Below are positions 1 to 26,714 of a DNA stretch of 64,000 bases, piece after piece. The stretch is from Microthrixaceae bacterium (GTDB lineage: Bacteria; Actinomycetota; Acidimicrobiia; Acidimicrobiales; Microtrichaceae). The stretch is from NCBI GenBank assembly GCA_027493675.1, contig JAOSKI010000003.1, forward strand, positions 62,001 to 126,000, in the 5' to 3' direction. The translations under genes were made by a program, and so were the position numbers. Under the pieces are notes generated by a model that did no database searches, was not told the origin of the DNA, and saw only the letters and a list, made by a program, of their open reading frames with translations. Numbering within the stretch: position 1 is the first letter of the stretch; every line of letters begins with the position of its first letter.

Positions 1-835
1 GGTCCACGTCCTCGCCGAACCGCAGGTCCTCGTCGAAGCCGCCCACAGCACGCACCCCGGCGGTGCGCACCACCAACGCTGCACTCGGCACGTAGGGCAC
101 CCTCGAGCGCGGTCGCACGATCGCCGGTTCCGCGCCGAGGTCGAGGGGACCCCGGGCCTCCTCGTAGCGGGCGAGCAGCCCTTGGCCTCCTGTGTTGCGC
201 ACCCGTGGGGCCACCGCCACCACCTGTCGGCCCTCCAGGTGCGCCAGGAGGGGTTCAAGCCAGCGCGCCGGAACCCGGACGTCCGCATCGACGAACGCCG
301 TCACCGGTGTGTCGACGACTGCGAGCCCGCTGTTGCGGGCTGCTGCTGGGCCACGCGCCTGTTCGTGGCGCACGAGAACCGCTCCGTTGGCAGCCGCCAG
401 CGAGCGGACCGCACCGGGATCACGTGACCCGTCGTCCACCACGACGGCCTTCACCCGTGTTGCACTCTGCACACCGGCGGTGCCGGGGAGGTTCCCAGAG
501 AGGTCGCCCAGCACCGCAGCGAGCCCTGGGGCGTCGTCGCGCACCGGGATCACGACGGTCACCTCGCCGAGATCTTCCTCGTCACCCTCGCCGCGAACCC
601 GCCGTGGCGCCGGATGCACCGCACCTGCGTTCAGGAGCCGGTCCCGGAGGCGCTCTTCGCCATCGTCGGTGGGATGCCAGCTCCCCGACTCGACAAGGCC
701 TGCCAACACGCGGTCTCCCCGGTCGCTCAAGCGGAACAACCTCAGCGGTGAGCCACCCAACCACATCCCAGGCGAAATACGACGGAGCGTCGCATCCGCG
801 ATCACCGCGGATCGCGCCGCTGCAGCGCTCGTCAC
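1..835 (-). CDS. mftF: Mycofactocin-system glycosyltransferase MftF (partial, runs off window start)
   Basis: Single open frame on minus strand read directly: ...GEVTVVIPVRDDAPGLAAVL...KAVVVDDGSRDPGAVRSLAAANGAVLVRHEQARGPAAARNSGLAVVDTPVTAFVDADVRVPARWLEPLLAHL...AVGGFDEDLRFGEDVD; GT2 fold motifs; mft context. Confidence 0.85.
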   Translation of the reverse strand, partial: MTSAAAARSAVIADATLRRISPGMWLGGSPLRLFRLSDRGDRVLAGLVESGSWHPTDDGEERLRDRLLNAGAVHPAPRRVRGEGDEEDLGEVTVVIPVRDDAPGLAAVLGDLSGNLPGTAGVQSATRVKAVVVDDGSRDPGAVRSLAAANGAVLVRHEQARGPAAARNSGLAVVDTPVTAFVDADVRVPARWLEPLLAHLEGRQVVAVAPRVRNTGGQGLLARYEEARGPLDLGAEPAIVRPRSRVPYVPSAALVVRTAGVRAVGGFDEDLRFGEDVD

Positions 836-845
836 CCGAGGATCC

Positions 846-1634
846 TCACGTGGCGGTCATCCCGGCGTCCACGGCGAGAACCGATCCGGTCACCCCCGAG
901 GCACCCTCGCTGCACAGCCATGCAACGGCATCGGCCACCTCCACCGGCTCCAGCAGACGACCCGATGTGTGGTGATCGGCGAACTCCTGGGTCGACTCGA
1001 GGTCGTAGACCGCTGCGGAGGCGGCGAGCATGTCGGTGTCGGTCGAACCGGGTGCCACGGCGTTGGCGGTGATCCCGGAGCCGGCCAGGTCGGCCGCCAT
1101 GGAGCGCACCAGGGAAACCACCGCAGACTTGGAGGCGGCGTATGCGCCCATCCTGGGCAGACCGCGTTGCGCGGCGGACGACGCGACCACGACGAAGCGA
1201 CCAGGCACCCCCGCAGCCAACATCGGGGGAATCGCCACAGCCGCGGTGTTGAGGACTCCCTCGACGTTGGTGCGGTGGATCGCCGACCATGCATCGGGCG
1301 GCGTCTCCCAGACCGCGGCGCCACCCCAGAGCACTCCGGCGGCGCACACGACCGCGTCGAAGCAACCCACGCCCAGACGGGAAAGCGACTCGTCGAGTGC
1401 CGCCATCAGCGCCGTGCGGTCACCGACATCCGCGGTCACCCCGAGTGAGCCGTTGGAGCAGTCGGCAACCACCGAATCGAGTTGTGCCCGGGTCGCGAGC
1501 GGGTACTCGATCGCCGCGTCGTCGCTGCAGCGGTCCAGCGCGACGACCGTCGCCCCGTCGGCTGCCAGGCGCCGGGCCACCGCGGCACCCATGCCCCGCG
1601 CGGCGCCGGTGACGAGAGCCGTCCTGTCGCTCAC
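846..1634 (-). CDS. SDR family oxidoreductase, probably mycofactocin-coupled
   Basis: VSDRTALVTGAARGMGAAVARRLAADGA...YAASKSAVVSLVRSMAADLAGSGITANAVAPGSTDTDM; TGxxxGMG and YxxxK motifs; adjacent to mftF. Confidence 0.85.
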   Translation of the reverse strand: MSDRTALVTGAARGMGAAVARRLAADGATVVALDRCSDDAAIEYPLATRAQLDSVVADCSNGSLGVTADVGDRTALMAALDESLSRLGVGCFDAVVCAAGVLWGGAAVWETPPDAWSAIHRTNVEGVLNTAAVAIPPMLAAGVPGRFVVVASSAAQRGLPRMGAYAASKSAVVSLVRSMAADLAGSGITANAVAPGSTDTDMLAASAAVYDLESTQEFADHHTSGRLLEPVEVADAVAWLCSEGASGVTGSVLAVDAGMTAT

Positions 1635-1788: not shown

Positions 1789-2727
1789 ATGATCGCAGTG
1801 GTGCCCGTGCGCTCCGGCGCACTTCCCGCCGGTGGGGCCGAGACGGTGGCGACCGCAGACGGCAACGTGATCCTCGTCGGGGAGAATACGGCCGCCGCGG
1901 TCCTCGAACTGGGTGGGCTCGCAACCGCCGTGCGTTGCTGGGAGACCCCCGGCTTCCAGCCCGGTCGGTGGGCCGACGCCTTGGCCGGGGTCCTCGCGGA
2001 CGAGCCGCTGGTGCTGTTGCCCGCAAGCCCCGACGGCCGTGACCTGGCCCCGAGGATCGCCACGGTGCTCGGTCACGAGCTCTTCAGTGCAGCAGTCGAG
2101 CTTCGCGACCACATCGTGCGCACCGTGGGCTTCGGTGGGGCGGCCATGCTGGAGCACCACATCGGTGACGCAGCGGTCATCACCGTTCAACCCGGAGCAC
2201 GTGGAATCGACCCGGCCACCGACACACACCCGGGTGAGCCACAGGTCACCTCGATCCACCCGGAGCTCCCCGACGTACCCGACTGCACAACCCTGGAGGT
2301 CCTCCCAGCCGACGCCTCCACCATGGACCTGGCGGAGGCCCCGCGCATCCTCGCCGGTGGCAACGGTCTCGACGACGCGGACCGGTTCACGAGGCTGAGC
2401 GCGCTCGCGGCGGCCATCGACGCGTCGGTGGGCACCACCCGTGTCATCACCGACAAGGGCTGGTTGCCGCACGAACGCCAGATCGGGACCACCGGGGTCG
2501 TCGTTGATCCGAAGCTGTACGTGGCCTTCGGCATCTCGGGCGCAGTGCAGCACACCAGCGGGTTGGGCCGCCCCGAACATGTGATCTCGGTGAACACCGA
2601 TGCGCACTGCCCGATGATGTCGCTCGCGGATCTTGCCGTGGTCGCAGACGCCAACGCCACGCTGGAGGCGCTCTGCGAGCTGATCGGCGTGTCGGACGAC
2701 ACTCATGTGGGAACCATCGGTGGCTGA
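1789..2727 (+). CDS. Electron transfer flavoprotein alpha subunit (mycofactocin-associated type)
   Basis: C-terminal ETF-alpha-like FAD-binding region: GWLPHERQIGTTGVVVDPKLYVAFGISGAVQHTSGLGRPEHVISVNTDAHCPMMSLADLAVVAD. Confidence 0.85.
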   Translation: MIAVVPVRSGALPAGGAETVATADGNVILVGENTAAAVLELGGLATAVRCWETPGFQPGRWADALAGVLADEPLVLLPASPDGRDLAPRIATVLGHELFSAAVELRDHIVRTVGFGGAAMLEHHIGDAAVITVQPGARGIDPATDTHPGEPQVTSIHPELPDVPDCTTLEVLPADASTMDLAEAPRILAGGNGLDDADRFTRLSALAAAIDASVGTTRVITDKGWLPHERQIGTTGVVVDPKLYVAFGISGAVQHTSGLGRPEHVISVNTDAHCPMMSLADLAVVADANATLEALCELIGVSDDTHVGTIGG

Positions 2728-4047
2728 CACGCCCCCGACCTCAGGCAACTCGCCCGACTTCGACGCTATCGTCGTGGGTGCGGGTCCTGCGGGTTCCGCC
2801 GCGGCGATCGAGCTCGCCCGGTCCGGACGCTCGGTCGTGTTGGTCGAACGAGGTCCCTTCCCTGGTTCCAAGAACATGTACGGCGGCGTCGTCTACGGAC
2901 GCATCCTCGACACGCTCGTCCCCCGATGGTGGACCGAGGCACCGATACAGCGCTGGGTGACCCGACGACAGACGATGATGATGACCGGCGAGCAGGCCCT
3001 CACCGTCGACTACCGCACGGAGGCCTGGGGGCGACCACCGTTCAACGGTGCAACGGCATACCGCCCCGACTTCGACTCCTGGCTGGCCGACAAGGCCGTG
3101 CAGGCAGGCGCCACCCTGGTGTGCTCCACCACCGTGACCGGGCTCATCCGCTCCGGCGGGAGGGTCGTGGGGGTTCGCACGGACCGCCCGGACGGCGATC
3201 TGCGCGCCCCGGTCGTCGTCGCCGCCGACGGCGTCAACTCCTTCCTCGCAAAGGAGGCAGGCCTCTACGGCGAGGTGGATCCCGCCAACTACACCGTGGG
3301 GGTCAAGGAGACCATCGCGCTACCCCGCCATGTGATCGACGAACGCTTCGCTGTCCGCGGCGACCACGGTGTCGACATAGAGATCATCGGCGCCACCGGC
3401 GACGTGCCGGGCGGCGGCTTCATCTACACCAACACCGACACCGTCTCGATCGGGCTCGTGCTGTCGATGCCCGCGCTGGCCCGAAGCGACAAGCGTCCCG
3501 AGGAGTTGCTCGCACGCCTCAAGGCACACCCCGCCGTCAGACCCTGATCGAGGGTGGAGAGGTGAAGGAGTTCTCGGCTCACGTGATCCCCGAGGCGGGT
3601 TACGACATGATGCCCGAACTCGTGGGCGACGGGATCCTCGTGGCGGGCGACGCTGCGGCCATGTGCCTGGCGGCGGGGATCTGGTTGGAGGGTGTCAACT
3701 TCGCGATCGGTTCGGGGGCGGCGGCAGGCCGTGCGGCTAGCGCTGCGATACGGCGCGGCGACACGACCAGGGAGGGCTCGCCGGGTACCGGGACGCGGCT
3801 CGAATCGAGCTTTGTGCTCGCGGATCACCGCAAGCTCCGGGAGGCACCGCATCTCGTGATGGGGGACCTCGCCCAGCGCCAACTTCCCGCCATCGCGTGC
3901 GGGGTGGCCGAGTCGGTGTTCACCGTGACCAACCCGGACCCGAAGCCCGGATTGGTGAAGATAATCAGGACGCACCTGAGACACAGCGGCCTCAGGTTTT
4001 CCACCGTGGCCCGGGAGACCTGGCGGGCGTTCAGGGCCTACGGTTGA
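2705..4047 (+). CDS. FAD-dependent oxidoreductase, FixC / ETF:quinone oxidoreductase-like (frameshift near 3540)
   Basis: DAIVVGAGPAGSAAAIELARSGRSVVLVERGPFPGSKNMYGGVVYG...; continues in another frame LIEGGEVKEFSAHVIPEAGYDMMPELVGDGILVAGDAAAMCLAAGIWLEGVNFAIGSG. Confidence 0.85.
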
Positions 4048-4109
4048 CACCCGGACGCAAGGGTCCCCACGTGCACAGCAACAGACCACGGACACCGACA
4101 CCGACACAG

Positions 4110-4409
4110 ATGACGCCTTCCACCTACCCGCTGATCAGCAACGAGACCCGGATGGGCACCGTGGAGTTCAGGGTCCACGAGCGCGCCCACATTGTCGTCG
4201 ACGACACCAGGTGCCGGGACTGCTCGGTGCGTGGGTGCGTCACCGCGTGCCCGGCGAACCTGTTCGTGCCGACCTCCGACGGCGGCATCCTGTTCAACTA
4301 CGAGCAGTGCTTCGAGTGCGGCACGTGCTACATGGTCTGCAACGCCGAAGGCGCCATCACCTGGTCCTATCCCGAAGGGGGCCATGGCGTGGTGTTCCAC
4401 ACGTCATGA
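4110..4409 (+). CDS. FixX-like ferredoxin family protein
   Basis: CRDCSVRGCVTACPANLF...NYEQCFECGTCYMVC cysteine motifs; ATGA overlap with next gene. Confidence 0.85.
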   Translation: MTPSTYPLISNETRMGTVEFRVHERAHIVVDDTRCRDCSVRGCVTACPANLFVPTSDGGILFNYEQCFECGTCYMVCNAEGAITWSYPEGGHGVVFHTS

Positions 4410-5257
4410 CGAACGCCCCGATCGGGCCGATCGCGGCGTGCGTCAAGTGGGTGGACCTGCACCCGGAGACAGACGTGGCCAACGGGGTGCCCAGGCCTTC
4501 GGCGCACAGCTGGGGGTTCTCCGAGGCGGACCGGGCGGCACTCGAGGTCGCGATGCGCCTGGGCGAGGCCGCGGGCACCGACGTGGTGCTGGTCTGCGCC
4601 GGGCCGATCGAAGCCAAGGGGGCCCTGGGTGAGCTGGCCGCCTCGGGAGCATCGCGAGCGATCCTGGTCGACCACCCGCTGCACTCTGCGGCCGGAACCT
4701 CCGGCGCGGTTCTCGCAGGTGTGCTCGGCGCCGGTGGCCTGGGGGTCCATGGCGTGGTGTGCGGCGACATGAGCAACGGTCGCGGGTCGGGGTCCGTCCC
4801 GGCGATCCTCGCCCATCACCTTGGTGCCGCCCAGGCACTCGGGCTGCTCGAGGTCTCCGGCGCGCCCGGCGAACGGATCCGGGCGGTGAGGCGCCTCGAC
4901 GGCGCGACGTGAGGTCGTCTCGATCCACGGCCTCGCAGTGCTGTCGGTGGAGGGTTCGGTTGCGCACCTGCGGCGCGCCCCGTTGTCGGCGACCCTGGGT
5001 GCCGGGGCACCCGAGGTGGAGGTGATCACCCCGGGCGCACATCACCCCGCACCGCGCATCGCCCGGGTGTTGCCCTGGCGACCCCGCCCCGCCGGCTTCC
5101 CGCACCTCACTCACCCGACGCCTTCGCACGAGTGCTCGAGCTGACCGGCGCCCTAACCGAGCACACCCCTCCCCGTACGGTCGAGGTCTCCCCTCGTGAC
5201 GCGGCACAGGTGATCCTCGACCAACTGCGGACGTGGGGATACCTCGACGACGGATGA
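4406..5257 (+). CDS. Electron transfer flavoprotein beta subunit (mycofactocin-associated type; frameshifts near 4910 and 5095)
   Basis: MTNAPIGPIAACVKWVDLHPETD...EVAMRLGEAAGTDVVLVCAGPIEAKGALGELAASGASRAILVDHP; later frame ...LDQLRTWGYLDDG*. Confidence 0.75.
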
Positions 5258-5973
5258 CCGTGACGCGATCCGGGAACACCGGTGATCTTGGGTCGCTCAC
5301 CTGGGTCGACCTCGACGGTGACCGCCGCCTGCTGGTGGTGCCCGTCGGCAGCTGCGAGCAACACGGCCCGCACCTGCCGTTGGACACCGACACGCTGATT
5401 GCGCAGGCGTTCGCCGCCGACCTGGCGGCCGCACGCGACGACACGCTCGTGGCTCCGGCACTGTCCATCGGCGCTTCGGGCGAGCACCGTGGATTCCCCG
5501 GCACGCTTTCCATAGGCACCGCGGCCATGACCTCGACGTTGGTGGAACTGGCCCGCAGCGCGCTTCCCGAACCGGGGTCGGGGAACCCGGGTGCGTTCAG
5601 CGCGGTGCTGTTCGTGAACGCCCACGGCGGGAACCTCGAAGCTCTCGAAGACGCACGGTCGACCCTCGCCGCCGAATCCCGCAGAGCGGACTTCTGGCAC
5701 CCCAGGGTCGACGGTGGAGATCCCCACGCAGGGGCGACCGAAACCTCGCTGATGCTCCACCTGCACCCCGAGCGGGTTCGCATGGAGCTGGCCGAACCCG
5801 GCTCCACGGCCAGGTTCTCCGACATCCGCGACGAGCTCACCGCCGGTGGGCTCGCAGCTGTCACGCCCAACGGCGTCCTCGGCGACCCGACGACGGCCTC
5901 GGCTGATGCCGGCGCGAGGCTCTTCGGCACACTCCGGGTCACGTTGTCGGAGGCGGCCGAGCGGCTCCTGTAA
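5254..5973 (+). CDS. mftE: Mycofactocin peptidase MftE (creatininase family)
   Basis: VPVGSCEQHGPHLPLDTDTLIAQAFA...SIGASGEHRGFPGTLSIG...FVNAHGGN creatininase-family metal ligands; ATGA overlap with etfB-like gene. Confidence 0.9.
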   Translation: MTVTRSGNTGDLGSLTWVDLDGDRRLLVVPVGSCEQHGPHLPLDTDTLIAQAFAADLAAARDDTLVAPALSIGASGEHRGFPGTLSIGTAAMTSTLVELARSALPEPGSGNPGAFSAVLFVNAHGGNLEALEDARSTLAAESRRADFWHPRVDGGDPHAGATETSLMLHLHPERVRMELAEPGSTARFSDIRDELTAGGLAAVTPNGVLGDPTTASADAGARLFGTLRVTLSEAAERLL

Positions 5974-6970: not shown

Positions 6971-8919
6971 TCACACGAGGGCCGCACCGACACGCTCGCC
7001 GTCGATCACCGCCGCGTGTGCCCTGCGGGGCGCCACGGCGTCGCCCACCCTCAGCACATCCGCACCGGTTGCGACCAGTTCGTGGTACAGCCCGTCCGCC
7101 GGGGTCGGCGGCACCGCCAACACAAGCCAGTCCGGGCTGCGCGTGACGGTCTGCTGGGTCGGATGATGCTGAAGGTTCACGACGTGACCCTCCACACCCA
7201 TGGGCACCAGCTCGGTCGATTGGGTGATTCCCTTGGCCTGGGCGCGTATCCAGAAGTTCTCGAGATCCAAGGTGATGCCCAGGTCCTGGCCGACCACCAT
7301 TCCGGGTGTGACGATCTCCACCGACGCTCCGCGGTCGGCCAGCAGCTCCGCGACCGATGTGGCCTGGTGGAACCCGAGCTCGTCCAGCACCAGCACCTCA
7401 CCCTCGGGATGCACCGCGCCGCAGAGCACGTCGCGCACGTCCACGATCCACTCCGCGTCGGCCGGTGCCCACCACGGTCTTGCGGGAACCGATCCGGTGG
7501 CCACGATCACCCGGTCGGGCCGTCGCCGCGCCACCTCAGCGGCGTCCACGGTCACCCCCGTACTCGAAGGTGACGCCGAGGCGGTTCGCCTCGTGGAGCT
7601 GGTTGCGCACCAGATCCGCGAACTCAGCTCGGTTGGGGACCGTTGCCGCCAGGGCGACCTGACCTCCCGGAGCGTCGGTCGCCTCGCACACCGTCACGCG
7701 GTGCCCGTTGCGTGCCGCAGCGATCGCGGCCTGCATGCCGGCGGGCCCGGCACCCACGACAAGCACGTCACGGCGCACCTCGACCGGAACCGCCTCGCCC
7801 ACGCCCTCGTGCTCGCGACCGGTACGTGGGTTCTCGATGCACCCGAGCCAGCGGTTGAGGCCCATGCGGCCCACGCATTCCTGGTTGCAGCTCAGGCACA
7901 GCCGGGTGTCGTCGGCCTCACCGGCGCGGGCCTTGGCCACGAAACCCGCGTCCGCGATCTGACCACGGACCACACCCACCAGGTCGCAGTGACCTTCGGC
8001 CAGCGCTCGCTCGGCCTGAAGGGGATCCTGAAGCGGCCGACGCCCACCACGGGGAGTTCGACCGCCCGCCGGATCGCAGACGGTATGAACATCGCGTAAC
8101 CCGGCGGGATGTGCATCGACGCCTCGATCATGAACAGCGATGCCGTGGCAACCCCGATCGAGGTGTTGATGTAGTCGACCTGCCCGGTGGCCTCCACCAT
8201 GCGGGCCACCTCGACCGCATCCTCGATCGTGGTGCCTCCCTCGATGAGCTCGTCGCCACAGATGCGCACGCCCAGGGCAAGCTCCGATCCGATCGCCGAG
8301 CGCACCGCGGCGACGATCTCCAACAGGATCCGCGCCCGGTCGGTGAGGGGCCCCCGTAGTCATCGGTGCGCCGGTTGGTGGCCGGTGAGAGGAACCCGCG
8401 CACGATCGAGGAATGGGAGCACTGCAACTCGATGCCGTCGAAGCCACCTTCGGCGCAGTGACCGGCCACGAGAGCGTAGGACTCGACGATCTCGGCTATC
8501 TCATGCCGGTCCACGGCCTTGGGGACCTCACGGAACAGCGGATCCGCGACCGCGGAGGGCGCCCAGACCGGCAGGCGTGAGTACATCGAGGAGGCCTGGC
8601 CTCCGTTGTGGTTGATCTGGGCGAAGATGGGCACGCGGTGGCGGTGGACCGCATCGGTCATTCGCCGGTACCCGGGTATCACCTCACGGTCGAAGCCGTG
8701 GATCAGCTTCTCGTAGGGCCAATCGGTGGGGTGGGTGGAATGCTCCTCGGTGATGATCAGCCCGGCTCCCCCAGCGGCACGCTCCTCGTAGTAGGCGGCG
8801 TGTTGCTCGGAGGGGAGGCCGTCGCGGGCGTAGTTGGTCAGATGCGCCGAGAACACGATGCGGTTGCGCACCGTGACAGGCCCGATCTGCATCGGTGACC
8901 ACAGGAGCCGCTCAGCCAT
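6971..8919 (-). CDS. Mycofactocin-system FadH/OYE family oxidoreductase (frameshifted)
   Basis: N-terminal OYE domain MAERLLWSPMQIGPVTVRNRIVFSAHLTNYARDG...; CLSCNQECVGR FeS motif; DVLVVGAGPAGMQAAIAAARNGHRVTVCEATDAPGGQV flavin domain. Confidence 0.85.
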
Positions 8920-11103: not shown

Positions 11104-11176
11104 CTTGTCCTACTCGATGGTCCAAGCGCTTGTCCTACTCGATGGTCCAAGCGCTTGTCCTACTCGATGGTCCAAG
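11104..11176. repeat. 25-bp tandem repeat, ~3 copies, over the korB stop codon
   Basis: tgtcctactcgatggtccaagcgct; tactcgatgg recurs at 11111, 11136 and 11161. Confidence 0.95.
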
Positions 11177-12205
11177 TGGAACCCGAGTGCAGAAGCTCCG
11201 AGATCAGCTCCCGCCCCGGTGGACGTTCGGGCACCGGGTTGCGTGCTCCGTAGACCGGCTTGTCCACCGCCCTGAAGACACCCATCGGTGTGGGCTCGTC
11301 CATGTTGGGTGACAACCGCGACAGCGCGAACGCGACCGAAGGGTGGTCACGGGCCTCGTTGTGCACGAGCAGCGCGTCCTCACCGACATCCGCGACGTCC
11401 ACGACCACCGCACCGTGCTTGGGGTCCAGCACCACGCCCTTGGAGCCGTCCGGGCCGAAGCGGATCGGTTCGCCCTGCACCAGCGGGATCAGCATGTCCT
11501 GGCGGGTGTCCCGCGAGGTGATCTGCTGGTAGGCGTGGTTGTTGAACACGTTGCAGTTCTGGAGGACCTCCACGAAGGCGGCTCCCTGGTGGGCATGGGC
11601 CCGCTTGAAGACCTCCTCCATGTGCTTGCGGTCCATGTCGTGGGTCCGCGCCACGAAGGTGGCATCCACGCCGAGGGCGACCGACAGCGGCAATAAGGGC
11701 GCGCCTCGGAGCCCTGGGGCGAGCTCTTGGTCACCTTTGCCCTGTTCGGAGGTCGGTGAGTACTGGCCCTTGGTGAGTCCGTAGATGCGGTTGTTGAACA
11801 AGAGGATCGTGATGTTCACGTTTCGGCGCAATGCGTGCAGGAGGTGGTTGCCGCCGATGGAGAGCAGGTCGCCGTCGCCGCCCACGACGAACACCGAGAG
11901 GTCAGGTTGGCAAGCGCCACCCGGTCGCATCGCAGGCGCTCGACCGTGGATCCCGTGGATCCCGTAGGTGTTCATGTAGTACGGGAAGCGCGCCGCGCAC
12001 CCGATCCTGCCCACGATCACGGTGTCCTCGCGGCGCACCCCCATGTCGGGCAGGGCGAACTGCATCGCCGCCAGGATCGTGTAGTCGCTGCAACCGGGGA
12101 CACCAGCGGACCTCCTGGTCGCTCTGCCAGTCGGCGCGGGTGGTGGTGGGTATGTCGACCGGCGTCGAGGTGAGCCCGGCTGAGGTGGGATTCTGTGACA
12201 GTCAT
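11160..12205 (-). CDS. korB: 2-oxoacid:ferredoxin oxidoreductase beta subunit (frameshifted)
   Basis: WCPGCSDYTILAAMQFALPDMGV...VGRIGCAARFPYYMNTYGIHGIHGRAP...PDLSVFVVGGDGDLLSIGGNHLLHALRRNVNITILLFNNRIYGLTKGQYSPTS; TPP GDGD motif. Confidence 0.85.
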
Positions 12206-14135
12206 CGTGTGCTCCGTGTGTTCCCGTTGCCGCCGGCCTGCTCCCCGGTTCCTCCGTCGGCGACATCGCCGAGGCATTTTCGGATCTCCACCTCGACCTC
12301 CCCTGCTGTGAAGGGCAGGCCCGCCACCTTGGACAGGCTCCGTGCGTCCACCAGGTACTCCGCACGCAGGATCATGGCCAGCTGTCCGGTGTTCATCTCG
12401 GGCACCAGTACCTTCGGGTAGGCCCTGATGATGTCCCCGAGGTCGCGGGCAGCGGGTTGATGTTGCGCAGGTGCACCTGGGCGACCCTGCCGCCGTCGTC
12501 ACGGACGCGCTCGACGGCGGCCGCTATCGCACCCCCAGGTGGAACCCCACCCGATCACCAGCACCTCCGCGCCGTCGACGTCACCCTTCACCTCGAGTGG
12601 CGCGTACTCCTCGCCACGCCGTCGATCTTGGCCGCACGCAGGTCGGTCATGCGCTGGTGGTTGTCCGGATCGTAGGAGATCTCCCCGGAGCCGTCGGCCT
12701 TCTCGATGCCACCCACCCGGTGCTCCAGACCCGGCGTTCCGGGGATCGCCCACGGCCTGGCGAGCGTCTCGGGATCACGCAGGTAGGGCCAGAACTCCTC
12801 GACCCCATCCGCGCTGGTGTGGTTCAGCTCCGTTGCGTAGCTGGTGGAGAGATCCGGCAACTTCTCCACGTCGGGGACGCACCACGGCTCGGAGCTGTTG
12901 GCGATGTAGCCGTCGGATAGGAGGATCACCGGCGTGCGGTACTTGATCGCCATCTCGGCGGCCTGGATCGCGCACTCGAAGCAGTCCGCCGGTCGGCTCG
13001 CTGCGATCACGGGCAGAGGCGACTCGCCGTGACGCCCGAAGATCGCCTGGGTCAGATCCGACTGCTCGGTCTTGGTGGGCAGTCCGGTGGAGGGCCCACC
13101 ACGTTGGATGTCGACGATCACGAGGGGCAGCTCGAGGCTCACCGCGAGATCGATCGTCTCGCTCTTGAGGGCAAGACCCGGACCCGAGGTCGTGGTCCAG
13201 GCCAGGTCGCCGGTGAAGGATGCGCCCACAGAGGAGGCAGCGGCCGCGATCTCGTCCTCGGCCTGGGAAGACCCTGATCGACGCCTCGGGATGCTTCGCG
13301 AGCTCGTGGAGGATGTCCGAGGCCGGCGTGATCGGGTACGAGCCGAGGTAGGTCGGCAGTCCGCTCAGCTGTGCCGAGGCGATGATCCCCAGGCGATGCC
13401 AGTGTTGCCGTCGATGTTCCGGTAGGTCCCCGGAGGGCGTTCCATGGGTGCCACCGAACGGGTCACAGGGATCAGCTCGGTGGTCTCCCCGAAGGACCAA
13501 CCCACCTCGAAGGCGGTGAGGTTGGAGTTCTTGACAAGCTCGTTGGAGGAGAAGCGCTGCTCGATCCAGTCGCGCAGATCAGAAGGGTTGCGGCTGTACA
13601 TCCAGCACAGCAGACCGAGTGCGAAGAAGTTCTTGGAGCGCTCGGCGTCGCGGCCTTTCACGCCGAGCTCCTTGACCTTGGTGACCGTCAGGCTCGTCAT
13701 GGGGACCTCGACCACGTGGTACTCGTCGAGGCTGCCGTCCTCGAGCGGATTGGCGTCGTAGCCGGCCTTCTCCAGATCACGCTCGCCGAAGCCGTCCCCG
13801 TTCACGATGACCATGCCACCCGGACGCACCTTGGGCAGCTCGGAGCGGAGCGCTGCGGGGTTCATGGCCACCAGCACGTCTGCGATGTCGCCGGGTGTGG
13901 AGATGTCCTCCGAGGAGATCCGCACCTGGAAGGCGGAGACCCCGGGGAGGGTGCCCGCCGGCGCCCGGATCTCCGCGGGGAAGTCGGGCAGGGTTGCGAG
14001 GTCGTTGCCTGCGAGCGCGCTGACGGCAGTGAACTGGCTGCCGGTGAGCTGCATCCCGTCGCCCGAATCGCCGGCCAGACGGATCACCACATCGGTGATC
14101 TCCTCATGCGGCTTCGTGGCCGTGTCGTCCGTCAC
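12202..14135 (-). CDS. korA: 2-oxoacid:ferredoxin oxidoreductase alpha subunit (frameshifted)
   Basis: VIRLAGDSGDGMQLTGSQFTAVSALAGNDLATLPDFPAEIRAPAGTLPGVSAFQVRI...; ERPPGTYRNIDGNTGIAWG; SGLPTYLGSYPITPASDILHEL; ...DLAWTTTSGPGLALKSETIDLAVSLELPLVIVDIQRGGPSTGLPTKTEQSDLTQAIFGRHGE. Confidence 0.85.
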
Positions 14136-14288
14136 GATGACCCTCCGTCGTCCACCACACCCTCGTTGGTGCAGTGTTCACAGCCACCCACGGCGACTCG
14201 AACGGAGCCGGGTGCACGGCCTTTCGCCTACCGTACCAATCCCCGGCGTCGAAACCAGATTGCAACCATGTGAAATCCGCCCACCCAT

Positions 14289-14344
14289 GGCGAACTGTCC
14301 GGTGTGGTGCGCGGATTCCGCGGTTGACACCGGTCAGTTCGCCG
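14289..14344. repeat. Dispersed palindrome family A, copy 1
   Basis: GGCGAACTGTCCGGTGT...ACACCGGTCAGTTCGCC, ~17-nt arms with one mismatch; core ggtgcgcggattccgcggttg shared with 21588-21644. Confidence 0.8.
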
Positions 14345-14500
14345 GGGTGCGCCCCGGTGAAGCCGGGGTGCGCCGGGTGCGCCGGGGTGCGCCCCGGTGA
14401 AGCCGGGTGCGCCGGGGTGCGCCGGGGTGCGCCCGGTGAAGCCGGGGTGCGCCGGGGTGCGCCGGGGTGAAGCCAGGGTGCCGGGGTGCGCCGGGGTGAG
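14337..14500. repeat. GC-rich minisatellite with GCCGGGGTGCGCC-like units
   Basis: Repeated gccggggtgcgccccggtgaagccggggtgcgccgggtgcgcc... between korA start and the upstream OYE gene stop. Confidence 0.9.
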
Positions 14501-14504
14501 CGGC

Positions 14505-16544
14505 TCAGGTGATCTCGAGAGCCCGGCGACGGCCCTCCAGTACGGCCTCGGCGACGGTGCGCGGGGCCACGCAGTCGCCTGCTGTGGCCACGCGGTGCCC
14601 CGTCGAAGCCGTGACCTGCTGCGCCAGCGCGTCGTCGGGCAGACGGTGTCCGCAATCGACCACCCACGTCACAGCGAGCTCGTCGAGGTCCTCCGAGAAG
14701 CGGTCGGACAGCACGACATCGGCCTTGCGGACCTTGCGCAGGATCCGGACGACGGTGCAGGTGGACCCCCGCCTGAGCAAGGCGCGCGTTGGCGGGCCCC
14801 ATGTCACCGCTACGCGCAAGCTCGTTGCCCACGATGTAGTCCGGCGTAGCGACGTGCACTGTCCGCCCTGTGCCGTCACCTGCCAGCAACTCCGCCACGG
14901 CGACGCCCGTGGGTCCTCCGATGGGATCCCACACGAGCACGTCACCCGCTGGAAGTGCCCCCGAAGTCACCTCCGGCGCGCCAGCGGCGCCGGCTCTCGT
15001 TGCCAGCACGTCCGCTGCACTCAGCACGGTCGCCGCCCTGGTCGACTCGAACCCGGCCTCGCCTGCGCGCCCGCCCGTCGCGACGATCAGGCATTGAGCC
15101 GACGTCGCCCGCTGGAGATCGACTTCGGCTCCTGTACGAACCTCCACGCCCAGGAGCCTGCACTCGGCCTCCAACCATCTGGCGAACACGCTGAGGCGGT
15201 GACGACCAGGCTGGCGGCCGTGGCGTGAAGCATGCCCCCGGGGCGCTCCGCGCGCTCCTCCATACGAACCGAATGCCCCTGGGTGGCCGCGACGCGTGCC
15301 GCCTCCATACCGGCAGGACCGGCGCCGACCACGAGCACCTCACGGCTGATGGCCACCGGCCCGGACGGCATCGAATCGGTGGTCTCGTGGCCGGCGAAGG
15401 GATCCACCACGCAGCTCACGATCGGGTTGCGGTTGTCGCGCACCGAGCACAGCTGGTTGCACAGCACGCAGGGCCTGATCCGCTCCGCCTGCCCTGCACG
15501 CAGCTTGGCGACCAGGCGGGCATCGGCGATCTGAGCGCGGTCATCTCCACCGCCCCGATGCGTGAACCGGCAACGAGCTGCTCGGCCATGGCGCACTCCA
15601 CGATCGAGCCCTGCGCCACGACCACCGTGCGGCCCTGCGTCGCGTCGTGGACCGCGTCGGCCACGTCCCTGCAAACCTCGGCGTTGAACCCCTCGGGTGT
15701 GTGACCGTCGGGGCGGGTTGCCCCCGCGGAGAAGATCGAACCCCGCACCACCGTGAGCATGTCGACCAGCGGGCGGTCACCGTCATGGTCCGCGTCCGCT
15801 GCGTCTCCGGGGGAACGCCCGATGACCAGCTCGGCGGCGAGGCTCGGCGCCACATCCGCGGTGATGCCCGCCCACGGTGCCAGCTCGTCGCAGCTGAGGC
15901 GCAGCGGAGCACCCGCGTCGGGCCGATCGCGTCACGAACCCCTGCGATCACCTCGCGCAGGAACCTCGGACGGTCCGCACCCCACTGATCGTCGCGGGTG
16001 TTGGTGAGCCCGGAGAGGAACTGGCGCGCGAGCGAGAACTGCCCGGCGTTGATCTCCACACCCGCGCAACCAGCGCGGACCGCGGTACGGGCAGCCTGCG
16101 CGAAGCCGTCGATCACAGCTTCGATGTCGCGCTCCTCCATCTGCTTGGGAACCTCACGGGTGTTCACCTCGGGGACCGCTCCCGGAGCCCAGAGCTCACG
16201 TTGGGACCAGTGCGAGGTCCCCTGGCCTCCGGCGTGACCCAGTGCTGCCAGCACCACCGTGCCGTGTGGTTCGCAAGCCGCCGCCACCTCGCGCCAACCG
16301 GACTCACAGCAGCTCGCCAGGGGGCGCGCTCATAGGGCCAGTCCGGAGTCGTGGACCGACGCCTCCTCGGTCACGACCACCCTGCACCTCCTGCCGCCCG
16401 GCGCTCGTAGTACGCGACGTGGCGCTCCGAGATGGCACGCCCGCGCCCGAGGTTGGTCTCGTGCGGCCCGAAGACGACCGCGCTGGGCGCGCGAACCGGG
16501 CCGATCTCGAGCGGGCCGGTCAGTCCCGTGTGGGTGTCAGGCAC
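14505..16544 (-). CDS. Second mycofactocin-system FadH/OYE family oxidoreductase (frameshifted)
   Basis: VPDTHTGLTGPLEIGPVRAPSAVVFGPHETNLGRGRAISERHVAYYERRAAGGAG (read by hand); VLCNQLCSVRDNRNPIVSCVVDP; EVLVVGAGPAGMEAARVAATQGHSVRMEERAERPGGML. Confidence 0.8.
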
Positions 16545-16593: not shown

Positions 16594-17256
16594 TCAGCGC
16601 TTGCGTGCGAGCATCAGGCCGTCGCCGACGTTCACCAGGAGCGCGTCGACCCGGTCGTCCGCGGTGACCATGTCGTTGTAGGCCCGGATGGCCACCGTGT
16701 CGTCGTCGTGGTCGTCCTCGTCGAGCACCCGTGCGGACCACAGTGTGTTGTCGGCCACGATGAGCCCGCCCGGGCGCATCCGTGGCAACAGCTGCTCGTA
16801 GTAGCGCGCGTACCCGGTCTTGTCGGCGTCGATGAACGCGAAGTCGATCTCCTCGGCTGCGGGCAGCCCGTCGAGGCCCGTCGCAGCAGGGCCGATCGTC
16901 ACCTCGATGCGGTCGGCGACACCGGCTTCGGCCCAGTAGGGACGTCCGATGTCGACCCACTCCGCGTTCACGTCGAAGCACCGCAAGCGGCCCTGCACCC
17001 CGAGTCCCTCTGCGGTGCACAGCGCCGAATACCCGGTGAAGGTGCCCCCCTCCACGGCCTGGGTCGCACCGATCAGGCCCACCATGAAGGTGAGCCAGGG
17101 TCCCTGCTCGGGTGACACCTGCATCGTCGCCCGGTCCCCCATCACCTGTGCGGTGTGGGCGATCAGACGCTCATGCACATCGGAGCGCGGTGGGTTGCTG
17201 TGAGCGACCAGGTACTGGGTCAGCTCGTCGGTCACGGGTATCGCCTTGCCTGCCAT
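16594..17256 (-). CDS. Class I SAM-dependent O-methyltransferase (CCoAMT-like)
   Basis: VEGGTFTGYSALCTAEGL...RCFDVNAEWVDIGRPYWAEAGVADRIEVTIGPA...IDFAFIDADKTGYARYYEQLLPRMRPGGLIVADNTLW. Confidence 0.9.
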   Translation of the reverse strand: MAGKAIPVTDELTQYLVAHSNPPRSDVHERLIAHTAQVMGDRATMQVSPEQGPWLTFMVGLIGATQAVEGGTFTGYSALCTAEGLGVQGRLRCFDVNAEWVDIGRPYWAEAGVADRIEVTIGPAATGLDGLPAAEEIDFAFIDADKTGYARYYEQLLPRMRPGGLIVADNTLWSARVLDEDDHDDDTVAIRAYNDMVTADDRVDALLVNVGDGLMLARKR

Positions 17257-17389
17257 CGGCACCTCCCTGGTTGCGCCTGTGGACCAAGTGTCGCAGGGTC
17301 CGACGGGTGACCTGTGGCGCCCGCGTGGAGCGCGGCCCGCCGGCTCGGACGCGGCGCGCGCCGCGCCCTGCGCGGGCAAAGATGTGCGC

Positions 17390-18267
17390 ATGCACCCCGC
17401 GGAGTCCCGAGACCTCTGGCATCTGATCGAGACCGTCCATGCGGTCACCTACTTCGCGCCGCGTTGCCGGGAGGCCAACGACGAGATGGGCTTCCGGGGC
17501 TTCTGGATGGGCTACTTCGGTTCCCGCGCCGCGCCGATGGGATCGGTCGGCCCTGGTGTCGTCACTGCTTGCTTCGGGGGTTCGAACCGTCGATGGTCGA
17601 AAGGGCGATCCCCGACGCATGGGCGGTCGTGACCCCGGATGCGGCGGTGACGGGTCGGGCGCGCGCCGCAGCATCCGCCCTACGCGCTGCACTCCCGGAG
17701 TGCGAGAACCTGGCCGATGACCTTCTGGGGGTGCTCGACAAGGCGATCGAAGCCTGCGAACCGGCCGGCCGGTCCATGTACGCCGCCAACAAGGACGTGA
17801 CCCCCTTCGAGGACCCCGTAGAGGATCTCTGGCAGATGTGCAGCACCCTGCGGGAGCACCGCGGCGACGGGCACCTTGCGGTTCTGACCTCGGAGGGTGT
17901 GGGGGGATGTGAGAGCCATCTCCTGGCCATCGCCTCCAGGGGTGAAGGCGCCGAGGTGCTGCGGGAGTCGCGGGGCTGGGCGGACCAGGACTGGTCCGAC
18001 GCCATGGCCACCCTCACGGCGGCGGGTGTGATCGAGGCGCCGGTCGAGGTGGCACATCTCGACGATCTGGTGCTGACCGAACGCGGGGCCAGGTTGCACG
18101 GCCACCTGGAGTCGCGCACCGACGACCTGGCCTCACCGCCGTATGCAGCAGTCGGGGAGGCGGGCCGCGAGGCGCTTCGCGACGGCCTGATCCCGATCGC
18201 GTCCGCGGTCGCGGAGCAGGGGTGGATCCCGTTCCCCAACCCGATCGGGCTGCCCGAGGTCGTCTGA
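17390..18267 (+). CDS. SCO6745-like conserved hypothetical protein (frameshift near 17570)
   Basis: MHPAESRDLWHLIETVHAVTYFAPRCREANDEMGFRGFWMGYFGSRAAPMGSVGPGVVTACF; second frame to ...EQGWIPFPNPIGLPEVV*. Confidence 0.7.
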
Positions 18268-18285: not shown

Positions 18286-19150
18286 TCAGGGGTCGTAGCG
18301 GTACTTCTCCGGCAGGTCCAGGGTGCCGTCGATCCCATCCAGCACGGCCGCGCGGACCTTGAAGAAGTCGGCGACGCCGGCGACGTCGTGCACCCGCAGG
18401 ATGTCTCCGGTCTCCACCTCGATGGCGGAGAGCGCCCCGTAGGTTCCCGGGTCGCGCCCCGAAGGCATCCGCTGCACGATGGCGCCGACGAAGTCCTTGC
18501 GTGAAACCGCCCACAGCACCCGGCGCACACCGAGTGCCGTTCGCAGCCGGGGCGTTCCACGCAGCACCGCGATCGACTGCTCCGGCGCCTTTCCGAGATC
18601 AGGTCCCGGATCCAGGATCACACACTCTCGGGCCACGCCTGCGGCCTCGAGCCGATTGAGGCGATCCCGCAGGAAGGCAATGGCGTCGGCCATCGGGTTG
18701 GCCACCAACCGATCACGGCTCATCCGCACCTTGGGCGTCGCGCGGCTGTACGCCACGACGAGGTCCAACCCGCGTTCGGCCACCAGCTCGGCCATGTCGG
18801 GATCGACCAAACCGGAGGGATCGTTGACCATGGAGGCACCCGCGTCGAGGGCGCGCTCGGCCACCGCCGCACGGTAGGTGTCGACCGACACCGTGCAGCC
18901 GGGACAGGCCGCAGTTACCGCCTCGATGACCGGGAGCACCGTGTCGAGCTCCTCGGAGACGGTGATCTCGCGACGGTCGGTTCGAAGCGACTGGCCACCG
19001 CAGTCCAACACCGACGCGCCGGCGGCCACCATCTGCGTGGCAAGCTCCTTCGCCCGAGCCGCGTCGACTCCCCCGGTGAGCGAATCGAGGGATGCGTTGA
19101 CCACCCCCATGATGCGCGGGGTGACTGCTCTGGTCGGGTCGCGGGTCACG
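18286..19150 (-). CDS. folP: Dihydropteroate synthase-like protein (start uncertain)
   Basis: PRIMGVVNASLDSLTGGV...LDCGGQSLRTDRREITVSEELDTVLPVIEAV...VSVDTYRAAVAERALDAGASMVNDPSGL; LDPGPDLGK. Confidence 0.8.
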
Positions 19151-19285
19151 ATTCCATCAGCCGAACCGCGGTCGCAGGAGCGCTCGCGGGGGCGCCGTTC
19201 GTCGTGGGCTTCGTCGCCATCGGCCCAGACCGTAGCGATCCTGTGCCGTCCCTGCCCGCGGAACGTCCATCGGCACCCGCGTGGG

Positions 19286-20107
19286 TCACTCGCTGGTCGG
19301 TCCCTCGAAGTGTGGGGCACGTCTCTCACGATGCGAGGCGAGACCCTCGACGACGTCGGGACCGCCGAAGCCGTAGAACTCGAGTCCCCATGAGGCATCG
19401 AAGATCGAGCTGTGATCGCGATACCAGTTGTTGAGGCTGTGCTTGGTCCAGCGGATCGCCGACTGCGAACCGGCGGCGAGTGCCTCGGCGACCTGCATCG
19501 CCCGGGTGTGCACCTCGTCGTCGTCGACGCACAGGCTGACCAAGCCGATCCGTTCTGCTTCCTCACCGGTTAGCGGATCACACGTGAGCAGGTAGTACTT
19601 GGCCTTGGCCATGCCGCACAGCAGCGGCCAGCAGATCGCAGCGTGGTCGCCCGCAGCGACACCCAGGCGGGTGTGGCCGTCGATGATCACCGCGTTCCGC
19701 CCTGCCACCGACACGTCCGCGAGCAACGCCGCCACGAGCCCGGCCCCCACCGCGGGACCGTGTATCGCCGAGACGACAGGCTTGGAGCAGTTGATCACGT
19801 TGAACACCAGGTCCCTCGCCTCTCGCAGCACGAGGGTGCGTTCGGCGAAGTCGGCGATCATGTCGTCGATCAGCTCGAAGCTGCCCCCTGCCGACAGAGC
19901 CTTGCCGGCACCCCGCAGGACGGCCACCCGCGTGCGGGGGTCACGATCGACCACCTGCCACACGTCTGCCAGTTGGCGGTGCACGGTCCGGTCCACCGCG
20001 TTGAGACCGGGCGCGTCGAGGGTGATGCGCAGCACCCACTCGGAGGGACGGTCGATGTGCAGGCCCGTGAACTCGCCGTAACGCTCGTCGTCGCAGGGGG
20101 TGCTCAT
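19286..20107 (-). CDS. Enoyl-CoA hydratase/isomerase family protein
   Basis: [24 protein letters not shown]...[61 protein letters not shown]. Confidence 0.85.
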
Positions 20108-23216: not shown

Positions 23217-23663
23217 TCACCCACCCACGGGGTCGAGGGAAGGGGTGTCGACGCGGTCGTGGATGGCCTGCAGGGCGTCCCAGTCGTCCTGGTCGAACAC
23301 GAACCGTCCCGAGGAGAACAACTCGGCGTCCTCCACCTCTATGTGCGCCGACAGCTCGTAGTACTCGCGTCGCCCGAAGCGCCCCTCGCTGATCGTCATG
23401 TGGATGTCGTCGTGCTCCGCCTCGAGGGTGCGCAGCGCTACGTCGCTCAACTCGCCCAGGTCGTAGAGCATCGGGTAGAGACCCGTCTCCTCCTTGGCCA
23501 CATGCGCGTCCAGCAGCGCCAGCAGGCGTTGCTTCACCGGCTGATCCTCCACGCCTGAGCGGATCGACTCGGCGAGAGCCCACGCCAGGTCAAGGATCAC
23601 GTCGTGTTCGGCGGTCAGCTCCGCCACCGGTGTGAACTCCCGACAACCGCAATGGTCACACAT
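23217..23663 (-). CDS. Hemerythrin-domain protein
   Basis: MCDHCGCREFTPVAELTAEHDVILDLAWAL...LLDAHVAKEETGLYPML...LEAEHDDIHMTI...HIEVEDAELFSSGRFVF; His/Glu spacing of hemerythrin fold. Confidence 0.8.
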   Translation of the reverse strand: MCDHCGCREFTPVAELTAEHDVILDLAWALAESIRSGVEDQPVKQRLLALLDAHVAKEETGLYPMLYDLGELSDVALRTLEAEHDDIHMTISEGRFGRREYYELSAHIEVEDAELFSSGRFVFDQDDWDALQAIHDRVDTPSLDPVGG

Positions 23664-23704
23664 GCCTATTATTTCTACTAGCTGGCCGACTATTTGTCGA
23701 CGGC

Positions 23705-25242: not shown

Positions 25243-25437
25243 TCAGTAGACCCCGCACATCCCGTCGATGGAGACCTCCTCGACCAGCAACTCCTCCTCG
25301 ACCAGCAGCTCGTCCTCGACCAGCTCTCCGGCCGATCCGGTCGAATCGAAACCATCGGTCGGATCACCCGTTGCCGGGTCGCTTGTCACCCGGGGCGATC
25401 CGTGGCGCTGGGGGGTCGTCGTCGTGGTTGGCTCCAT
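25243..25437 (-). CDS. mftA: Mycofactocin precursor peptide MftA
   Basis: 64-aa ORF ending in the diagnostic ...LVEEVSIDGMCGVY* immediately upstream of mftB-mftC. Confidence 0.97.
   Translation of the reverse strand: MEPTTTTTPQRHGSPRVTSDPATGDPTDGFDSTGSAGELVEDELLVEEELLVEEVSIDGMCGVY
25277..25323. repeat. 18-bp direct repeat (3 copies of tcctcgaccag core) inside mftA leader
   Basis: tcctcgaccag at 25277, 25295 and 25313; encodes LVEDEL-LVEEEL-LVEE. Confidence 0.9.
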
Positions 25438-25589
25438 GGACTGATCCTAGGCCCGGCCTTCTGTGCAACGCATCGCAGGTCGGCCATGGGACCCCGGCGC
25501 AACGACGGCACCGCACATGAGGTAGAACTACCCGAGGCATGCCGTGGCATGCCCACAAGCGGAGAACCACCAACCGACAAGGGGATGCC
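25438..25589. promoter_or_regulatory. Divergent intergenic region between mftA and the NDMA-type alcohol dehydrogenase
   Basis: ~150-bp non-coding gap between divergent starts; no specific promoter element assigned. Confidence 0.5.
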
Positions 25590-26714
25590 ATGCCGACGAC
25601 CACCCGTGCCGCAGTGCTGTGGGGCGACCACCAGGACTGGAAGGTCGAGGACATGACCCTCGACGACCCGGGCCCCGGTGAGGTCCTCGTGGAGATGGCC
25701 TATGCGGGGATGTGCCACTCCGACGAGCACGTCGTCACCGGAGACATGCCGGTCCCGTTCTGGCCGTTCGTCGGAGGACACGAAGGTTCGGGCGTCGTCA
25801 CCCAGGTGGGCGCCGGCGTGACCCATGTGGCGGTGGGCGACCACGTCTCGATGGCGTTCATGCCCGCCTGCGGGCACTGCAAGTCCTGCTCGACGGGCCA
25901 ACAGAACCTCTGCGACGAGGGGTTCAAGTTGTTCGACCTGCAGATGATGACCCGCAGCGAGGGCGAGCGGTCGCACACCATCGGCGACTCCGAGGCTGCC
26001 CGCTTCGCCCAACTGGGCACCTTCTCGGAGAAGATCCTCGTGTCGCAGGACTCCCTGGTGCGGGTTGAACCCGACCTTCCCATGGACGTCGTCGCCCTGG
26101 TGAGCTGCGGCGTGGCCACCGGGGTCGGTTCCGCGGTGCACCGCGCGGAGGTGCGTGCCGGACACAACGTCGCCGTGGTGGGGATCGGCGGTGTGGGCAT
26201 CAACGCCGTGCAGGGCGCGGCCATCTCGGGCGCCAAGCGCGTGATCGCCGTCGACCCGGTGGAGTTCAAGCGCGAGAAGGCCATGGAGATGGGCGCGACC
26301 CACACCTACTCCTCGGTGGAGGAGGCGCTGCTCGCGGTTCCCGAGCTCACCTGGGGTGAGATGTGCGACTCGGTGATCATGACCCCCGGCGTCATCACCG
26401 GTGACATGGTCGAACCTGCACTCAACCTGGTCTCCAAGGGCGGAAGGCTCGTGGTGACCGCCCTCAACGGCATGCTCGAGAACGACGTGCAGCTCAACCT
26501 GTTCATGCTCGCGATGATGAACAAGTCGGTCTTGGGCACCGTGTTCGGTTCCGGCAACCCCCGCGCCGACATACCGGAGCTGCTCTCGATGTACCGCGAG
26601 GGCGTGCTCGACCTCGACGGCCTGATCACCAACCGCTACTCGCTCGAGGATGTGAACCAGGGCTACCAGGACCTGCGCGACGGCAAGAACATCCGCGGTG
26701 TCATCGAGTTCTGA
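25590..26714 (+). CDS. NDMA-dependent-type Zn alcohol dehydrogenase (mycofactocin-dependent family)
   Basis: Intact 374-aa ORF: AYAGMCHSDEHVVTGDMPVPFWPFVGGHEGSGVVTQVGAGVTHVAVGDHVSMAFMPACGHCKSCSTGQQNLC; adjacent to mftA. Confidence 0.92.
   Translation: MPTTTRAAVLWGDHQDWKVEDMTLDDPGPGEVLVEMAYAGMCHSDEHVVTGDMPVPFWPFVGGHEGSGVVTQVGAGVTHVAVGDHVSMAFMPACGHCKSCSTGQQNLCDEGFKLFDLQMMTRSEGERSHTIGDSEAARFAQLGTFSEKILVSQDSLVRVEPDLPMDVVALVSCGVATGVGSAVHRAEVRAGHNVAVVGIGGVGINAVQGAAISGAKRVIAVDPVEFKREKAMEMGATHTYSSVEEALLAVPELTWGEMCDSVIMTPGVITGDMVEPALNLVSKGGRLVVTALNGMLENDVQLNLFMLAMMNKSVLGTVFGSGNPRADIPELLSMYREGVLDLDGLITNRYSLEDVNQGYQDLRDGKNIRGVIEF

What the first reader, a model, noticed from the sequence alone, without database searches (positions are those of the whole stretch)
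1789..5257. ETF / ETF-quinone-oxidoreductase-like / ferredoxin module embedded between mftF and mftE: candidate respiratory outlet for mycofactocin
Seen: etfA-like, fixC-like, fixX-like and etfB-like genes read in one direction, with ATGA overlaps fixX/etfB and etfB/mftE. Established: mycofactocin is a redox cofactor for nicotinoprotein dehydrogenases, and ETF plus ETF:QO passes electrons to quinone. Mycobacterial loci are described as using a GMC-type protein (MftG) for re-oxidation; I see no GMC-type gene here. Inference: this lineage may re-oxidise reduced mycofactocin through a dedicated ETF to quinone chain.
Basis: partly seen in the sequence, partly recalled or inferred. Interest (0 to 1): 0.75.

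Follow-up and report, generated by a model that had tools for sequence, protein, structure and literature searches.

The report
Mycofactocin-dedicated ETF–quinone electron-transfer operon
Next to the genes that make the redox cofactor mycofactocin, this actinobacterium carries its own small electron wire (an electron-transfer flavoprotein plus a quinone-reducing partner), which in other genomes is fused into the mycofactocin operon and may replace the exit route known from mycobacteria.

Summary
In detail: etfA, fixC, fixX and etfB lie at 1789-5257, ending in mftE, though fixC and etfB are frameshifted here (intact in all relatives) and mftF lies divergently behind an mft-coupled SDR. NCBIfam already names EtfA/EtfB "mycofactocin-associated". 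Across 397 Actinomycetota genomes, this EtfA occurs in 12, all mftC-positive. FixC occurs in 16 of 73 mft genomes, always at or beside the mft genes, never in genomes with true MftG. OYE pair and mftD never share a locus (27 versus 44). EtfB has lost the acyl-CoA-dehydrogenase recognition loop. ETF and MftG are near-alternatives, but at least three genomes carry both, and about 40 of 73 mft genomes have neither. Best reading: a dedicated OYE -> EtfAB -> FixCX -> menaquinone chain of mftD-less mycofactocin systems. Whether it re-oxidises mycofactocinol or takes electrons from the step MftD normally performs is undecided. New variant of a known kind; nothing biochemical is shown.

The parts
1..835 (-). 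mftF, mycofactocin glycosyltransferase (runs off the window start to about -593)
   Evidence: TIGR03965 323 bits on L008:11693-12832
846..1634 (-). mycofactocin-coupled SDR oxidoreductase
   Evidence: TIGR04504 299 bits, cut-off 250
1789..2727 (+). etfA: mycofactocin-associated ETF alpha subunit
   Evidence: NF038209 346.7 bits; own clade, support 100/99
2705..4047 (+). fixC-like ETF:quinone oxidoreductase flavoprotein, frameshifted near 3540
   Evidence: both halves hit PRK10157/PRK10015 FixC; 86% and 72% identical to the intact congener gene
4110..4409 (+). fixX-like ferredoxin, CxxCx4Cx3C and CxxCxxCx3C motifs
   Evidence: PRK15449 54 bits, Fer4 domains
4406..5257 (+). etfB: mycofactocin-associated ETF beta subunit, two frameshifts
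   Evidence: TIGR04503 111.4 + 31.8 bits in pieces, 127.9 joined
5254..5973 (+). mftE, creatininase-like peptidase
   Evidence: TIGR03964 263.9 bits
6971..8919 (-). OYE_2: mycofactocin-system FadH/OYE (TMADH-fold) Fe-S flavoenzyme, frameshifted
   Evidence: TIGR03997 in three pieces, 351/204/203 bits; 4Cys motif CLSCNQECVGRMGLNRWLGC
14104..16539 (-). OYE_1: mycofactocin-system FadH/OYE paralogue, frameshifted (start approximate)
   Evidence: TIGR03996 in three pieces, 165/56/85 bits
23855..24918 (-). mftC, mycofactocin radical SAM maturase, frameshifted near 24040
   Evidence: TIGR03962 489 bits
24819..25169 (-). mftB-like (by resemblance to mftB of relatives; ends approximate)
   Evidence: sequence reading; not HMM-tested
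25243..25446 (-). mftA precursor frame ending IDGMCGVY
   Evidence: pattern scan
25539..26714 (+). NDMA-dependent (mycofactocin-type) alcohol dehydrogenase
   Evidence: TIGR03989 522.6 bits, cut-off 440

Best explanation
The genes encode a dedicated electron-transfer chain of the mycofactocin system that ends at the quinone pool. A TMADH/FadH-type Fe-S flavoenzyme of the same cluster (OYE_2, perhaps OYE_1) oxidises a mycofactocin species; EtfAB takes the electrons; FixC (FAD) with FixX ([4Fe-4S]) passes them to menaquinone. I think the main flux is re-oxidation of mycofactocinol, making this the counterpart of MftG in a lineage whose clusters also use the OYE pair where others use MftD. Shown by sequence: families, conserved operon, mft-dependence, single mft-linked FixC, loss of the EtfB recognition loop, near-exclusion with MftG, OYE/mftD alternation. 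Inferred: the donor, the order of carriers, the direction of flow and menaquinone as acceptor.
For: EtfA over cut-off in 12 of 397 genomes, all mftC+ (hypergeometric 7e-10, not corrected for phylogeny). FixC in 16 of 73 mft+ genomes, in the mft locus or next to mftE/mftF, otherwise absent. Operon mftC-OYE_1-OYE_2-etfA-fixC-fixX-etfB-mftE/F in Acidimicrobiia, Pseudonocardiaceae and other actinobacterial MAGs, with divergent versions in f48 and G327. Strong OYE hits at the mft genes in exactly the FixC+ genomes of the phylum sample. OYE_2 keeps an invariant 4Fe-4S motif and belongs to the fold of TMADH and histamine dehydrogenase, where TMADH, dimethylamine dehydrogenase and Pno reduce ETF, and Pno sits in a cluster with etfAB and an ETF:quinone oxidoreductase (PMC7688666; PMC8097209). 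EtfB lost EPRYPSFKGIMAAK and gained a C-terminal arm, while the same genomes keep canonical ETFs. MftG in 0 of 22 ETF+ versus 5-7 of 12 ETF- OYE-type Pseudonocardiaceae, MftG clade checked by tree. PMFT midpoint -255 mV (PMC7491314) leaves room for quinone reduction. The MftG paper leaves open what replaces MftG in about 25% of mft genomes (PMC11778925).
Against: At least three genomes have both ETF module and MftG. About 40 of 73 mft+ genomes have neither, so a dedicated outlet is not obligatory. In the MftC tree the MftG carriers of Pseudonocardiaceae form one clade, so the exclusion reflects few events. The OYE/mftD alternation fits a biosynthetic role at least as well. OYE_2 is as close to 2,4-dienoyl-CoA and 2-naphthoyl-CoA reductase as to TMADH and lacks the cysteinyl-FMN Cys (Pno lacks covalent FMN too).
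Confidence: 0.5

Rival explanations
1. [quoted passage not shown] The module then serves cofactor synthesis, not cofactor turnover.
For: mftD is absent from every OYE/ETF-type locus examined (44 plus 26 named loci with mftC) and the OYE pair from all 27 mftD loci; the two types alternate several times on the MftC tree; MftA still ends in GVY, so the same deamination is needed; MftD does this step (PMC7491314); Pno is an ETF-reducing CH-NH dehydrogenase of the same fold; mftD was already noted as not universal (PMC3023750).
Against: 12 of 30 OYE-type Pseudonocardiaceae loci have no ETF, so OYE function does not need it; it does not predict the association with MftG absence; a four-gene respiratory chain seems large for one turnover per cofactor molecule.
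Confidence: 0.25
2. Reverse flow: the ETF carries electrons from quinol or a nicotinoprotein to OYE_1/OYE_2, which act as ene-reductases on an unknown unsaturated substrate (compare FixABCX in carnitine reduction).
For: Closest solved relatives of OYE_2 include reductases (6qkg, 1ps9); E. coli fixABCX lies next to carnitine genes.
Against: Nothing in the locus suggests a reducible substrate; the genes sit inside the cofactor-making operon; mft-dependence is strict in the sample.
Confidence: 0.1
3. FixABCX-like electron bifurcation: mycofactocinol or NADH electrons are split between quinone and a low-potential ferredoxin, for instance to feed the radical SAM enzyme MftC.
For: Same gene content as FixABCX; EtfB model matches 7koe among others; FixX has two 4Fe-4S motifs.
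Against: EtfB fits AMP-type and bifurcating ETFs equally; most mftC genomes do without the module.
Confidence: 0.08
4. An ordinary ETF for acyl-CoA dehydrogenases that happens to lie near mft genes.
For: ETF folds are shared.
Against: Own clade, recognition loop lost, canonical ETFs present elsewhere in the same genomes, synteny in many genera.
Confidence: 0.02

Closest known systems
NCBIfam NF038209 (mft_etfA) and TIGR04503 (mft_etfB)
   Same: EtfA of the window is a member above cut-off; congener EtfB too
   Different: The family records name the association only; FixC/FixX partnership, OYE pair, mftD absence and MftG relation are not part of the model names
MftG (TIGR03970), mycofactocin dehydrogenase of mycobacteria
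   Same: Proposed role: electrons from mycofactocinol to the respiratory chain
   Different: Unrelated GMC protein; not found over cut-off in this genome; alternative in most genomes
FixABCX / YdiQRST of E. coli and EtfABCX (7koe)
   Same: Same four protein types: two ETF subunits, FixC flavoprotein, FixX ferredoxin
   Different: Gene order etfA-fixC-fixX-etfB, inside mft clusters, distinct EtfA/EtfB, EtfB arm
Pno-EtfAB-Euo of nicotine degradation and TMADH-ETF
   Same: Fe-S flavoenzyme of the TMADH fold clustered with ETF and ETF:quinone oxidoreductase
   Different: Substrate is an alkaloid or amine; here presumed a mycofactocin species; QO is FixC+FixX rather than fused ETF-QO
mycofactocin system FadH/OYE oxidoreductases TIGR03996/TIGR03997
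   Same: Window OYE_1 and OYE_2 are pieces of these families
   Different: Known only as functionally unassigned neighbours; here tied to ETF/FixCX and to absence of mftD

Membership tests
mft_etfA (NF038209) | score over curated cut-off 240 | tested here: met
   346.7 bits
mft_etfA (NF038209) | occurs only with mycofactocin biosynthesis | tested here: met
   12 of 12 mftC+, 0 of 324 mftC- genomes
mft_etfB (TIGR04503) | score over curated cut-off 200 | tested here: inconclusive
   127.9 bits because of frameshifts; congener G254 209.0 bits, met
FixC / ETF:quinone oxidoreductase | homology over the full FixC model | tested here: met
   halves cover about 5-266 and 266-408 of PRK10157; curated cut-off not reached by fragments
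FixC / ETF:quinone oxidoreductase | reduces quinone | not testable with these tools
   needs enzyme
canonical ETF for acyl-CoA dehydrogenases | EtfB recognition loop (EPRYPSFKGIMAAK) | tested here: not met
   absent in 18 of 18 mft EtfB, present in close variants in all 14 canonical paralogues compared
MftG (TIGR03970) | GMC protein over cut-off in this genome | tested here: not met
   best hit 111 bits, frameshifted GMC; congener none at 1e-20
bifurcating FixABCX | second FAD in EtfB, ferredoxin reduction | not testable with these tools
   model matches both ETF types
TMADH/histamine dehydrogenase (for OYE_2) | FMN-barrel plus 4Fe-4S plus nucleotide-binding domains | tested here: met
   full-length or near full-length matches 6de6, 3k30, 1djn; four Cys invariant in nearly all members
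TMADH/histamine dehydrogenase (for OYE_2) | 6-S-cysteinyl FMN cysteine | tested here: not met
   no Cys at that position in the alignments to histamine dehydrogenase

The most novel reading that the evidence does not exclude
There are two chemically different ways to make and run mycofactocin: the MftD type, with an outlet such as MftG, and an OYE type in which a pair of Fe-S flavin dehydrogenases both forms premycofactocin and re-oxidises the reduced cofactor, handing all electrons through a private ETF-FixCX chain to menaquinone.
Probability: 0.25. Interest if true: 0.85.

Novelty: new variant of a known kind. Interest (0 to 1): 0.62.

Why it matters
It offers a concrete candidate for an open question stated in the MftG paper (what serves the quarter of mycofactocin genomes without MftG) and for a second one (who performs the MftD step where mftD is missing from the cluster). 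Both become testable in culturable Amycolatopsis and Pseudonocardia strains. It also suggests functions for two protein families (TIGR03996, TIGR03997) known only as neighbours.

Tried and rejected
No paper held mentions mycofactocin together with 'electron transfer flavoprotein'; the one paper holding it with 'old yellow enzyme' was not followed. Rejected: chance adjacency and an acyl-CoA-dehydrogenase ETF. Considered strict ETF/MftG exclusion and dropped it after three double genomes. Considered that the G322 GMC (389 bits) is MftG: it falls outside the MftG clade, so 17 rather than 18 sample genomes carry MftG. P values for co-occurrence are not corrected for shared ancestry; the tree shows few independent changes for MftG, more for OYE/mftD.

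Full report
Observation. etfA, fixC, fixX and etfB read left to right at 1789-5257 and run into mftE, with ATGA overlaps fixX/etfB and etfB/mftE. NCBIfam assigns etfA to NF038209 (346.7 bits, cut-off 240), the etfB pieces to TIGR04503, mftE to TIGR03964, the divergent SDR to TIGR04504 and the divergent glycosyltransferase to mftF, TIGR03965. fixC has one and etfB two frameshifts in this assembly. mftC and both OYE genes are broken as well, while fixC is uninterrupted in relatives; the genome scores 55.8% complete at 3.44 Mb against 96% for a 3.5-Mb congener, so indel errors are likely.

Distribution. In 397 genomes of the phylum, mftC is over cut-off in 73 and mft EtfA in 12, all of them mftC-positive, with a gap from 312 to 174 bits below. 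Within the window's own order 11 of 11 etfA genomes are mftC-positive (35 of 47 genomes are; p = 0.024). A FixC query finds 16 of 73 mft genomes, all in the mft locus or beside mftE/mftF: the 12, plus G327 and three genomes of family f48 with divergent modules. EtfA forms its own clade (support 100/99), apart from canonical EtfA of the same genomes. A scan of GTDB contigs found 161 relatives; 80 were fetched, mostly Acidimicrobiia MAGs but also Amycolatopsis, Pseudonocardia and other actinobacterial records. Of these loci, many truncated by contig ends, 78 hold fixC, 70 fixX, 68 etfB, 56 mftE and 51 mftF; the window's divergent arrangement occurs in four, at least three of them Microthrixaceae by title.

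The missed partners. The most frequent further neighbour is a pair of FadH/OYE flavoenzymes, TIGR03996 and TIGR03997, directly before etfA in many loci; both lie in the window, at about 14104-16539 and 6971-8919. In the 73 mft genomes strong OYE hits at the mft genes occur in exactly the FixC-positive genomes, the window's being fragmentary; G335 and G041 have only weaker hits, not on the mft locus. OYE_2 carries the cluster motif CLSCNQECVGRMGLNRWLGC in nearly all members. Its closest solved relatives are 2-naphthoyl-CoA reductase, 2,4-dienoyl-CoA reductase, histamine dehydrogenase and TMADH. TMADH, dimethylamine dehydrogenase and Pno pass electrons to ETF, and Pno sits with etfAB and an ETF:quinone oxidoreductase (PMC7688666; PMC8097209).

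mftD. No OYE/ETF-type locus holds mftD, and no mftD locus holds the OYE pair: 44 against 27 loci with mftC in view, plus 26 named OYE loci; ten loci have neither. In Pseudonocardiaceae the contrast is 0 of 30 against 5 of 8 (p = 1e-4), with several changes along the MftC tree. Three genomes carry two mft clusters, one of each type in the cases seen (for one of them, G526, the ETF-type locus is inferred from positions). MftA ends in IDGMCGVY in OYE-type loci, so the same core must be deaminated. MftD performs that step in mycobacteria (PMC7491314).

MftG. In the phylum sample 18 genomes pass the TIGR03970 cut-off; a tree leaves 17. None has FixC (p = 0.008). In OYE-type Pseudonocardiaceae, MftG is in 0 of 22 ETF-positive genomes and in 5 (7 with two near-cut-off members of the clade) of 12 sampled ETF-negative ones (p = 0.003 or 0.0001). 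IMCC26207, P. acidicola and P. bannensis have both. On the MftC tree the MftG carriers form one clade in which P. acidicola keeps the ETF and its sisters lack it, as expected if MftG arrived first and the ETF was then lost; but this is few events.

Proteins. All 18 mft EtfB compared have lost the recognition loop EPRYPSFKGIMAAK of canonical EtfB, reading LRRAxL or a close variant instead, and gained a C-terminal stretch around YRPRxRVLPxP and LTGAL. An AlphaFold2 model of Amycolatopsis EtfB (pLDDT 80) matches human, W3A1 and bifurcating EtfB about equally.

Reading. The gene content gives a chain OYE -> EtfAB -> FixC/FixX -> menaquinone that belongs to the mycofactocin system. I favour re-oxidation of mycofactocinol as its main job (0.5), with the biosynthetic role as acceptor for an MftD substitute the chief rival (0.25). 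The potential of PMFT (-255 mV) lies below that of menaquinone (about -74 mV, own knowledge), so the flow is downhill. Donor, direction and acceptor are inferred, not shown.

Noticed in passing
window 11163-14135 (-): 2-oxoacid:ferredoxin oxidoreductase alpha and beta subunits lie between the two OYE genes.
   Followed up: no
window 26777-27793 (+); L055 12020-13879 (reverse-strand coordinates): A MoxR-type AAA ATPase follows the NDMA-dependent alcohol dehydrogenase; a MoxR/VWA-like gene also sits beside mftD in L055.
   Followed up: no
window 23217-23708 (-): Hemerythrin-like gene directly after mftC.
   Followed up: no
window 16594-17448 (-) and 18286-19566 (-): An O-methyltransferase and a dihydropteroate-synthase-like protein near the mft genes.
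   Followed up: no
G493, G526, G576 (L206, L221-L224): Pseudonocardiaceae genomes with two mft clusters, one OYE/ETF type without mftD and one mftD type.
   Followed up: partly
L049, L050, L051 (family f48): Divergent mft clusters with MftA ending DGICGVY, a single OYE and a divergent ETF/FixCX module.
   Followed up: partly
L052, L174, L175, L178, L182, L183, L200, L202, L204: mft loci with neither mftD nor OYE in view; who makes premycofactocin there is unknown.
   Followed up: no
L084, L087, L130, L096: Record titles name Bifidobacterium breve or Ferrithrix thermotolerans although the mft/ETF loci resemble those of Acidimicrobiia MAGs; probably mislabelled.
   Followed up: no
20 named loci, about 0.7 kb before etfA (e.g. 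L133:4379-5098): A VTT-domain (DedA-like) membrane protein precedes etfA.
   Followed up: no
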